Assembly: GCA_022561975.1 (NCBI GenBank) | Contig: JADFQD010000008.1 | Coordinates: 1 to 55,803 of the forward strand | Direction of reading: 5' to 3' | DNA from: Acidobacteriota bacterium | GTDB taxonomy: Bacteria > Acidobacteriota > Thermoanaerobaculia > Multivoradales > JAHEKO01 | Length of the DNA: 55,803 nt | Part shown: piece by piece, positions 613 through 27,971 of the stretch | Numbering within the stretch: position 1 is the stretch's first letter | Layout of the letters: each line of letters opens with the position of its first letter | Program-made: the position numbers and the translations under genes | Notes under the pieces: generated by a model | Seen by the model: the letters and a program-made list of their open reading frames with translations, nothing else | Database searches by the model: none | Told to the model about the DNA's origin: nothing

Positions 613-684
613 GGAAAAGCGGTGACAGGCTACTCATTCAAGAACCTGCGTTGCCATCGCTGGCATCTACCGGAATGAGTAGCC
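613..684. repeat. REP-like inverted repeat, right arm interrupted by the IS element
   Basis: The left arm (613-639) is followed by a 33-base spacer and the start of the right arm (673-685). The right arm is cut by the IS element and resumes at 2051-2062. Joining 673-685 to 2051-2062 restores a 25-base reverse complement of the left arm. The same sequence occurs a third time, intact, at 27946-27971, where 26 bases match 613-638 exactly in reverse complement. The arms carry GGTGACAGGC, in the style of REP palindromes mobilised by RAYT/IS200-like transposases (my reading of the motif, not a database match). Confidence 0.75.
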
Positions 685-685
685 T

Positions 686-941
686 TCTATGAGTCGGTCG
701 GTCCAGTCAAGAGTTGATTGTTTCTCTGGTCATGGTTTTCTTGCTTCGGATCAAGGCAGAGGACGAGCTTCTATTCGCACTCTCTCGGGTCCTTCTTTGG
801 ACCGGTGCATGGTGAGTTTTGCGTCCGTTAAGGATTCGATGCTCCCATCTGTCACACGGCATCCGGGCCACCAAGGTTACTCTCGGAGTCATCGAAACTC
901 TCAATCCGTCCTTCTTCTGTAGCGTTCGTCCTCTCTTTTCC
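686..941 (-). ncRNA. candidate bridge RNA region of the IS1111-type element
   Basis: In IS110-family elements the transposase is guided by a bridge RNA encoded in the long non-coding end; in the IS1111 subgroup this is the end 3' of the transposase gene. The 256 bases between the transposase stop and the core dinucleotide fit that place. A 10-base stretch at 846-855 (catctgtcac) is identical to the junction of element end and target at 2046-2055, which could be a guide segment. No folding was computed, so the boundaries are only the limits of the non-coding end. Confidence 0.4.
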
Positions 942-1955
942 CTACGCCGCCTGCGGAAACGCCCGGAAGCTCTCGCCCGTCACCCACAGCTGATGGAGCA
1001 ACACGGCGATCTTCCTCGCCAAGGCCACCACGGCTTTCCCCTTACCGAGCCTCTCGACCAAACCCTCGCCCCAGCGTTTGAGCGACGAGTCCTTCCTACA
1101 GTTCAACGCCGCGTGCGCCGCCTGAACCAGAAGCCTTCTCATCTCCGAATCCCCCTCCCGGGTGATCCGGCCTCGGATCTCGTGACCTCCCGAGCTTCGA
1201 AGCGACGGACGTAGTCCCAAGCACGCGCCCACGTCTCGGCTCCTCTTGAACCGATCCGGAGAGTCCACCCAGCCCATGTACGCCAAGCTCACCAAGGGCC
1301 CCACACCCGGAACGGTCTGAAGCCGAACCAGAAGCTCGTTCGACCTCGACTCGGCTACGAGCGCTTTCTCGAGGCCGTTGATCCGATCCGTCAGCTCCCC
1401 GATCGTCGTTACCAGTGGATCGATCGCTTCCGAAAGGGTGGTCTTGAGACCCATCGACGCAAAACGCACGACAAAGCTCTTGGCCGCACACGACGGCACC
1501 CGGTACCCTTGAGCTCGCAACATTCCTCGCACCGCGTTGATCAGAGATGTCCGAGATTTAACCAGGCTCGTGCGTACTCGGAGCCGGGTTCGCAGCTCCT
1601 GGGCCTCGCGCCTGCGTTGATACACCGGACGTAGAAAGCCCAGATCCAATCGGCTCAGACGCGCCAAGACCTCCGCATCGATCCTGTCCGTCTTCAAGGT
1701 CGATTCCGCGATCAGCCGCACCCGCCGCGGGTTGACCACCGTCACGTCGTGTCCCAACTCGCAGAGCAATCGAACCACCCACGGCGTCACCGGCCCGCTC
1801 TCGAGCGTCACCTGCGAGCGCTCACGAGGACCGAAGAAGCGCCGAAGAGCCGTCTCCGTCGTCGGAATCCGACGACGGACGGTCACTTCCCCCTCCCCGG
1901 AAAGCCCGCAGATCTCGCTGTACTTCGAATGGACGTCGATGCCAAAATACTCCAT
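942..1955 (-). CDS. IS110-family transposase
   Basis: 337 residues, a normal length for the family. The N-terminal RuvC-like DEDD domain shows FGIDVHS (Asp7 region), an ESGP motif near residue 53 and KTDRIDAEVLA near 92-102, supplying the catalytic acidic residues. The C-terminal Tnp domain has QTVPGVGPLVSLAYM and the conserved GLRPSLRSSG / RRLLVQAAHAAL segments, where the family keeps its catalytic serine. The protein recombines DNA at a core dinucleotide using a bridge RNA. The frame is intact with no stop or frameshift, so the copy could be active. It starts 95 bases inside the element end. Confidence 0.95.
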   Translation of the reverse strand: MEYFGIDVHSKYSEICGLSGEGEVTVRRRIPTTETALRRFFGPRERSQVTLESGPVTPWVVRLLCELGHDVTVVNPRRVRLIAESTLKTDRIDAEVLARLSRLDLGFLRPVYQRRREAQELRTRLRVRTSLVKSRTSLINAVRGMLRAQGYRVPSCAAKSFVVRFASMGLKTTLSEAIDPLVTTIGELTDRINGLEKALVAESRSNELLVRLQTVPGVGPLVSLAYMGWVDSPDRFKRSRDVGACLGLRPSLRSSGGHEIRGRITREGDSEMRRLLVQAAHAALNCRKDSSLKRWGEGLVERLGKGKAVVALARKIAVLLHQLWVTGESFRAFPQAA

Positions 1956-2123
1956 GGTCGGTTTCCTTTCTCGGCTCTGATGCCGATTCCTTGGTTATCT
2001 TCCAACTGGCACATTGTCCCAGCTGGGAAACCGACCGACTCATCTCATCTGTCACCGCTTTTTAGCCTCCTGCCCGGATCTGTCCAGCCGAACCTTCAAG
2101 TCGAACCTGACACGGCAGTATTA

Positions 2124-3013: not shown

Positions 3014-3838
3014 TTAAGGCGCGTGAGCCAGGGGCTCGGGCTCTTGGGCCGGGAGCTCGAGGCTTTTGGCGGTAGCCTTAGCGGCACCGAAGTCGACGAT
3101 GAAGGCGAGAATCTTCATTTCAGAGCCGCAGAACGGGCACAGGAGCGGGTCGACTTCGTAGACGCGGCGAATCAACTTCGCCCAGCTGAGGCGGGCGCGT
3201 CGGGTGAACTCGTCGTCGTCCTGGCTGCGCGGTGTCTGGCTGGCCTGTGTCGTCGCGTCCTTGCGGCGTTTACCGCGGGCCGCATTAGCGTAGAAGCCCC
3301 AATATCGGACTTCTCTGCTGTGACGGCTCGGGAATGTGGTCGACGACCCGGGCGAGGAACTCGAGGACATCCCAGCGGGCTTCGCCGCCGTCGGGTCCGG
3401 CGCGGCGTGAGGGCCGGCCACTGTAGTGGACTTCTCCGGTGTCCGCGTGCCAGCTCAGACGCTTGAGAACGATCGGGCAGCGGATCATGTAGCGGCCGAG
3501 GCGCACGGCACCCTGCCGGTCCTCGACGCGCACCGCACCATGCACTGAGAAGCCGCTGTGGCGCCAAGACAGCAGGTTCTCCACGATCGCCTCGGTGATC
3601 AGCTCCTTGCCGAGGAGCATTCGGAGCACCTCGGCGCGAAAGAGCCGCTCGACATGCTGGAAATGGAACCAGGCGAGCGGTCGGAACGTGCCGTCCGGCG
3701 TGAAGCCGCCGTCCGTCACGTGGGTGTGAAGGAAGCGCTCCTCATAGACACGGAGAAAGTGCTCGAAGTGTTGGGCGAGGACCCAGATAGAGCACGGTGC
3801 GCTCGGGATGGCGCCCGCGATAGACCTGTGCATGCGAA
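3014..3838 (-). pseudogene. IS91-family (Y2/HUH) transposase relic
   Basis: Three blocks of IS91-transposase sequence follow one another on the minus strand. First comes an N-terminal piece ending QHFEHFLRVYEERF. It runs directly into HTHVTDGGFTPDGTF, so the zinc-finger region and most of the HUH nickase core, well over 100 residues, are deleted. A central part follows (NLLSWRHSGFSVH, RYMIRCPIVLKRLSW, LEFLARVVDHIPEP). Near 3320 the frame shifts and the match continues in another frame as VRYWGFYANAARG, then RARLSWAKLIRRVYEVDPL and CPFCGSEMKILAFI. With an internal deletion through the catalytic motif and a frameshift it cannot be functional. Confidence 0.85.
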
Positions 3839-3989
3839 GCCGCTGCGACCGTCTCCACTCTGAAGAGAGAAGACGGAATCGGCAGCCGCGAGCTTGCGCT
3901 CGAGCCACGCCGACCAACTCAGACGACCACGAAAGCACGCTGACCCATTCCGTCCGATATGGGCGGGGTGCCGCGAGTCTCGCGCACCT

Positions 3990-27639: not shown

Positions 27640-27945
27640 ACCCGGCAAGCGAAAGCGAGTCGGGAAGTGACTTGGGGGTGCGAGTCCCCTGGAGGCCTTG
27701 ATGGCAGGGACTTCTAGCCGAACAGCAACCGCGTCGCTGCGAGGCGGGGTGGGAAGGCAGCTGCAGGCAAAGCCCTGGCCCGAGGAACACGAACCGCAAA
27801 GGAGACGTCCATCCGGTGGGCGAGGGGGCCATAAGACCCGAAGCCCGATGCCATCCGGACTGGCTGGGCGTAGATGCGGCGGGTATGTGGGGCGAAGGTC
27901 ACGTTTCCCCGGCGGCCGCGAGTTCCTGCGATCTGCCTTCCAAGA
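27640..27945 (+). mobile_element. group II intron relic (domain I-like), no reverse transcriptase
   Basis: The sequence has segments I recognise from the 5' ribozyme part of bacterial group II introns: gggggtgcgagtcccc (hairpin, about 27674-27690), cttctagccgaacagcaacc, the ggcaaagccctggccc stretch and gaggaacacgaaccgca (about 27781-27799). No reverse-transcriptase ORF, domain V or intron 3' end follows, so only the domain I portion survives. The assignment rests on motif memory and needs a covariance-model search. Confidence 0.5.
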
Positions 27946-27971
27946 AATGAGTAGCCTGTCACCGCTTTTCC
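27946..27971. repeat. intact single arm of the REP-like repeat
   Basis: 26 bases identical to the reverse complement of 613-638. The sequence includes gtagcctgtcaccg, the uninterrupted form of the target site split by the IS110-family element. No second arm is found nearby, so it is a half-unit. It abuts the group II intron relic. Confidence 0.85.

What the first reader, a model, noticed from the sequence alone, without database searches (positions are those of the whole stretch)
613..2064. IS1111-type element caught inside a REP palindrome, with two empty copies of the target in the same window
Joining the flanks (…685 and 2051…) restores gtagcCTgtcaccg, which exists uninterrupted at 27946-27969 and, inverted, at 615-638. 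This gives the exact ends, a CT core on both sides, and shows that the target is a REP-like arm. REP targeting by IS110-family elements (IS621, ISPpu9/10) is established; here target, occupied site and intact paralogous sites can be compared directly.
Basis: partly seen in the sequence, partly recalled or inferred. Interest (0 to 1): 0.72.

Follow-up and report, generated by a model that had tools for sequence, protein, structure and literature searches.

The report
RNA-guided IS1111 element in transposon end
A small RNA-guided jumping gene of a known type (IS1111) sits inside a short repeated palindrome that is itself the end sequence of another mobile element; it is a clean, well-documented example of known biology rather than something new in kind.

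Summary
A 1365-bp IS1111-type element (686-2050; transposase 942-1955 on the minus strand, 14/14 subterminal inverted repeats, 7-bp and 3-bp extensions) interrupts one arm of an 84-bp palindrome. Removing it restores the arm exactly. The best empty copies are two complete palindromes elsewhere in the genome (contig C17, 98-99% identical across the junction). The site at 615-638 is only the partner arm of the same palindrome, and 27946-27969 is a lone arm. The REP label needs correcting. One arm alone does not fold, and in relatives such arms lie inverted on both sides of a Y1 transposase gene, so the target is a transposon-end repeat (TIR of a RAYT/TIRYT-like element). The 256-nt region downstream of the transposase gene encodes a predicted seeker/bridge RNA. 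Its target guides match the flanks here (right 8/9, left 7/8). Across ten related insertions, guides match their own flanks far better than shuffled ones (right p<5e-5; left about 0.001). Mechanism and target class are known, with IS4321/IS5075, ISPa11 and IS621 as precedents. I file it as a new member of a known kind, useful as a natural reprogramming series. Interest is about 0.33.

The parts
613..685 (.). Left part of the target palindrome: arm 615-638, spacer, and the proximal part of the interrupted arm (673-685)
   Evidence: Inverted repeats I1 and I4; 98-99% identical to empty palindromes on C17
2051..2064 (.). Distal part of the interrupted arm (GTCACCGCTTTT) and the palindrome edge
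   Evidence: Inverted repeat I1 with 615-628
686..2050 (-). IS1111-type insertion sequence, 1365 bp; core CT at 684-685 (target copy) and 2049-2050 (element copy)
   Evidence: ends fixed by the 7/3-bp rule of PMC11187229 and by the same ends in G002 and G008
2030..2050 (-). Left end: 14-bp subterminal inverted repeat (2030-2043) plus 7-bp extension AGATGAG (2044-2050, read on minus strand)
   Evidence: (I2, 14/14)
686..702 (-). Right end: 14-bp subterminal inverted repeat (689-702) plus 3-bp extension AGA (686-688, read on minus strand)
   Evidence: (I2)
942..1955 (-). DEDD transposase, 337 aa (Pfam PF01548 + PF02371; NCBIfam NF033542 IS110 family RNA-guided transposase, 238.8 bits against cut-off 140)
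   Evidence: IS621 structure 8wt6 E=5e-10
686..941 (-). 256-nt non-coding region downstream of the transposase gene
764..904 (-). Predicted seeker/bridge RNA: two stem-loops, first with target guides, second with donor guides
   Evidence: Covariance model hit (this sequence is one of the nine the model was built from); consensus structure with 8 compensatory pairs
874..882 (-). Right target guide GAGTAACCT, complement of right flank AGGCTACTC except one base
849..855 (-). Left target guide GTGACAG, same as left flank plus core
768..774 (-). Candidate donor guide ATAGAAG, same as right end plus core in the element circle
   Evidence: Read from the alignment: in 10/10 elements this guide changes (A/G) together with the right end
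27943..27969 (+). Lone, uninterrupted arm of the same repeat family

Best explanation
This is an RNA-guided IS1111-type insertion sequence. After excision as a circle, its DEDD transposase carries a short RNA made from the region downstream of the transposase gene. One RNA loop pairs with both strands of the target (left half GGTGAC, right half AGGCTACTC) and another pairs with the joined ends of the circle; strand exchange at a CT/AG core inserts the element without a target duplication. The target here is the terminal inverted repeat of a Y1 (RAYT/TIRYT-like) transposase element, present as single arms and as paired-arm palindromes. Shown by sequence: ends, core, empty and occupied sites, guide-flank covariation, arm-Y1 association. 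Inferred: circle formation, RNA expression, strand exchange, present activity.
For: Transposase family and IS621 homology. GL-P----SG motif present (GLRPSLRSSG) and 337 aa, within the IS1111 range of PMC11187229. 14/14 subterminal repeats with 7/3 extensions. Long non-coding region downstream. Covarying two-hairpin RNA whose model finds ten copies in 72 genomes of the order, each beside a relative of this transposase. Each element's right flank matches its own guide: total 69 matches against 48.5 +/- 4.3 for shuffled partners, 0 of 20,000 shuffles reaching it; left flank p about 0.001. Donor guide ATAGAAG or ATGGAAG agrees with the right end (CATAGA or CATGGA) in 10/10. Target arms: 20 in the genome, 0 in control; the arm motif in 13 of 59 genomes; arm 38 bp before the Y1 start and inverted arm after it at the same positions in G005 and G013.
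Against: The right guide has one mismatch to the arms in its own genome (the guide expects GGTTACTC; arms read GGCTACTC or GGATACTC). In relative G008 the right flank does not match its guide (5/9) and the Rubrobacter element matches poorly. The element is single-copy, so activity is untested, and no empty site at the same chromosomal position was found. No RNA data.
Confidence: 0.9

Rival explanations
1. The target is a true REP/REPIN (self-folding repeat mobilised by a RAYT), and not a transposon end repeat.
For: Dispersed and palindromic in the paired form, with a -33.4 kcal/mol fold of the 82-nt paired unit. The linked Y1 protein hits the REP-associated tyrosine transposase model (66.1 bits). 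The GGCTAC arms contain GTAG.
Against: A single arm does not fold (z about 0). GTAG is not conserved (arms also read GTATCC). Arms sit as terminal inverted repeats around the Y1 gene. The model hit is below its cut-off of 80. About 20 copies rather than hundreds.
Confidence: 0.2
2. The element recognises the shape of the palindrome (a folded cruciform or hairpin) rather than an RNA-guided linear sequence.
For: The window insertion lies in an arm of a strong palindrome.
Against: Flank sequence agrees with RNA guides across ten elements, several with different flanks. The junction matches a linear site of about 15 bp.
Confidence: 0.05
3. The element is an inactive remnant and the guide match is inherited from an old insertion, with no current RNA guidance in this host.
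For: Single copy in this assembly; guide mismatch to local arms.
Against: Intact 337-aa open frame, perfect 14/14 end repeats, exact junction, and a full-length RNA model match (131.7 bits). The draft assembly (215 contigs) could hide copies.
Confidence: 0.25

Closest known systems
IS4321 / IS5075 (IS1111 family)
   Same: IS1111-type element that inserts into the terminal inverted repeat of another transposon (Tn21 family), one fixed position and orientation (Partridge and Hall 2003, cited in PMC11187229)
   Different: Here the target is the end repeat of a Y1 single-strand transposase element, with solo and paired copies scattered in the genome
ISPa11 (IS1111 family)
   Same: IS1111 element with downstream seekRNA, targets a dispersed palindromic repeat (P. 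aeruginosa REP) (PMC11187229)
   Different: Different target sequence; the arm here is not a self-folding REP
IS621 (IS110 group)
   Same: DEDD and serine recombinase, bridge RNA, CT core (core from own knowledge), targets REP (PMC11208160; homology)
   Different: IS621 has its bridge RNA upstream of the gene and lacks long subterminal repeats; here it is downstream with 14-bp repeats
ISEc11 / ISXne4 pair
   Same: Natural redirection: close relatives with different guides and matching different targets (PMC11187229)
   Different: Here ten elements, with left guide nearly constant (GTGNCAG) in the nearest clade and right guide changing
TIRtrons / TIRYT genes (PMC3733652)
   Same: Y1 tyrosine transposase genes flanked by inverted repeats that also occur as single and dimer repeats
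   Different: This is the target element, not the IS itself; this repeat lacks the GGGGWSAS consensus reported for some

Membership tests
IS1111 family (IS110 superfamily) | DEDD transposase of 330-350 aa with C-terminal GL-P----S(T)G motif | tested here: met
   337 aa, GLRPSLRSSG; PF01548, PF02371, NF033542
IS1111 family (IS110 superfamily) | Subterminal inverted repeats of about 11-13 bp (7-17 bp by PMC11208160) with 7-bp left and 3-bp right extensions | tested here: met
   14/14 at 689-702 and 2030-2043; extensions AGATGAG and AGA
IS1111 family (IS110 superfamily) | Longer non-coding region downstream of tnp | tested here: met
   256 nt downstream against 95 nt upstream
IS1111 family (IS110 superfamily) | seekRNA with top-strand complement before bottom-strand match, matching the target | tested here: met
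   Order and matches; structure. Prediction only, no RNA data
IS1111 family (IS110 superfamily) | Circular intermediate and no target duplication | not testable with these tools
   No duplication is seen beyond the 2-bp core; circle needs experiment
REP (repetitive extragenic palindrome), for the target | 20-40 bp self-complementary hairpin unit | tested here: not met
   Single arms give -0.8 and -0.1 kcal/mol, z 0.09 and 0.77
REP (repetitive extragenic palindrome), for the target | GTAG tag at one end | tested here: inconclusive
   GTAG present in the GGCTAC arms, absent in the GGATAC arms
TIR of a Y1 transposase element (TIRtron), for the target | Inverted copies on both sides of a Y1 transposase gene | tested here: met
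   G000 C158 deleted copies; G005 and G013 Y1 genes with arms at identical spacing
TIR of a Y1 transposase element (TIRtron), for the target | GGGGWSAS motif shared by some TIRs (not by all) | tested here: not met
   Arm AAAAGCGGTGACAGGCTACTCATT has no such motif; PMC3733652 says other TIRs are unrelated to it too, so this is not a required feature

The most novel reading that the evidence does not exclude
This IS1111 lineage has specialised on the end repeats of Y1 transposase elements: it keeps the left guide (GTG-N-CAG, the constant start GGTG-N-CA of several repeat families) and rewrites only the right guide as the repeat families diverge, so that one mobile element tracks another through its RNA.
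Probability: 0.35. Interest if true: 0.5.

Novelty: new member of a known kind. Interest (0 to 1): 0.33.

Why it matters
It gives a compact natural test of RNA-guided insertion: occupied site, empty paralogues, guides and a set of relatives with changed guides and matching changed flanks. It also adds the ends of Y1 (RAYT/TIRYT-like) elements to the list of transposon ends hunted by IS1111 elements, and the guide mismatch at the variable base of the repeat suggests a testable tolerance or a recent arrival from a relative carrying the GGTTACTC form.

Tried and rejected
Search for an empty site at the same chromosomal position in the family: neighbouring gene and joined flanks gave none. Copies of the element in its own genome: none; four other IS110 proteins at 25-30% identity are different elements. 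Pattern GGTGCCANNCCANTT in four relatives was not above its control except for a recurring GGTGCCANCCGATTT form in G032; fourteen regions fetched around such hits (13 in G032, 1 in G002) showed a dispersed repeat in G032 but no Y1 gene, so the link of that repeat to Y1 elements is unproved. Y1 genes of 61% identity or less to the cognate one carry no such arms nearby. Structure prediction was not run: homology to IS621 was already clear.

Full report
Observation. The element interrupts the right-hand arm of an 84-bp palindrome (arm 615-638, spacer, arm 673-685 continued at 2051-2064). Joining 685 and 2051 restores the arm exactly as it stands at 27946-27969. The arm occurs 20 times in the 3.66-Mb draft genome with up to 3 mismatches, against none for the reversed control. 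The joined flanks match two complete palindromes on contig C17 at 98-99% right across the junction; these are the proper empty paralogues.

Ends. CT occurs at 684-685 and at 2049-2050, so the junction alone leaves a 2-bp slide. The IS1111 rule of 7 bp outside the left and 3 bp outside the right subterminal repeat (PMC11187229) gives 686-2050, 1365 bp, with repeats 689-702 and 2030-2043 (14/14). Relatives G002 (90% protein identity) and G008 (71%) have the same ends, AGATGAG...AGA.

Protein. ORF 942-1955 (minus) carries both Pfam domains of the family, passes the NCBIfam model 'IS110 family RNA-guided transposase' (238.8 bits, cut-off 140), matches solved IS621 and ISCro4 transposases, and has the IS1111-type GL-P----SG motif (motif from PMC11187229).

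RNA. The 256 nt after the stop codon hold a conserved two-hairpin RNA: an alignment of nine relatives gives 24 pairs, 8 with changes on both sides that keep the pair. A covariance model finds ten copies in 72 genomes of the order, each beside a relative of this transposase; most of these were the sequences it was built from. The first hairpin has an internal loop. Its 5' side (GAGTAACCT, window 874-882 minus) is the complement of the right flank AGGCTACTC at 8 of 9 bases; its 3' side (GTGACAG, 849-855 minus) equals the left flank plus core. This is the order reported for IS1111 seekRNAs (PMC11187229).

Natural reprogramming test. The right flanks differ among ten related elements (nine distinct flanks). 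Scoring each flank against each guide region, own pairs total 69 matches, shuffled pairs 48.5 +/- 4.3, and none of 20,000 shuffles reaches 69. Over the whole RNA without choosing a region, p = 1e-4. For the left flank in seven elements p is about 0.001. Related elements are not fully independent, and G008 and the Rubrobacter copy fit poorly. In the second hairpin, ATAGAAG or ATGGAAG matches the element's own right end, CATAGA or CATGGA, in all ten (read), as expected for donor recognition.

Target identity. The arm motif with a variable base, GGTGACAGG-N-TACTCATT, is found in 13 of 59 genomes, 12 of them in the same family. A single arm does not fold; the paired form does strongly. In this genome, two elements of about 0.4 kb on C158 consist of arm, deleted Y1 transposase gene, inverted arm. 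In relatives G005 and G013, Y1 genes 82% and 74% identical to the local one have an arm 38 bp before the start and an inverted arm after the gene at identical positions. The local Y1 protein hits Y1_Tnp and, below cut-off, the REP-associated tyrosine transposase model. The target is therefore a terminal inverted repeat of a Y1 element with solo and dimer derivatives, as described for TIRtrons (PMC3733652), and not a REP in the strict sense.

Mismatch. The right guide expects GGTTACTC; local arms read GGCTACTC or GGATACTC, while GGTTACTC arms exist in G008. Either one mismatch is tolerated, or the element came from a genome with the T form. Published IS621 work found most insertions at a natural target one base off the encoded one (ATCAGG against ATCGGG, PMC11208160), so tolerance is plausible.

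Verdict. A well-supported new member of the IS1111 family using a known mechanism on a known kind of target (transposon ends, palindromic repeats). What is modestly new is the target class (Y1-element ends) and the series of relatives in which the guide changes together with the flank.

Noticed in passing
window 27733-27907 (+): Strong Rfam hit to a group II intron fragment (RF02001, 107.6 bits) with no reverse transcriptase gene seen nearby, ending about 36 bp before the lone arm.
   Followed up: no
window 3285-3938 (-): IS91-like Y2 transposase remnant (PF04986); the same kind of Y2 sequence is fused in frame behind the Y1 gene at G000:C184 (L153:1459-2817).
   Followed up: partly
L148 about 441-510 (G032:C347): Right end of a related IS1111 element present as a tandem 49-bp duplication, with the outer copy at the junction.
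   Followed up: no
L149 (G032:C144): Related element whose predicted RNA has lost the left-guide arm (about 16-nt deletion), possibly unable to find its target.
   Followed up: no
L209 1337-1482 (G032:C359) and other G032 loci: Dispersed repeat GGTGCCA-N-CCGATTTG-(A/C)-(A/G)-AGT-like in G032, the likely target family of the IS1111 copies there; no Y1 gene found beside it.
   Followed up: partly
G006:C18:4879-7776: Recurring inverted arm pairs about 160 bp apart, seen in the pattern search.
   Followed up: no
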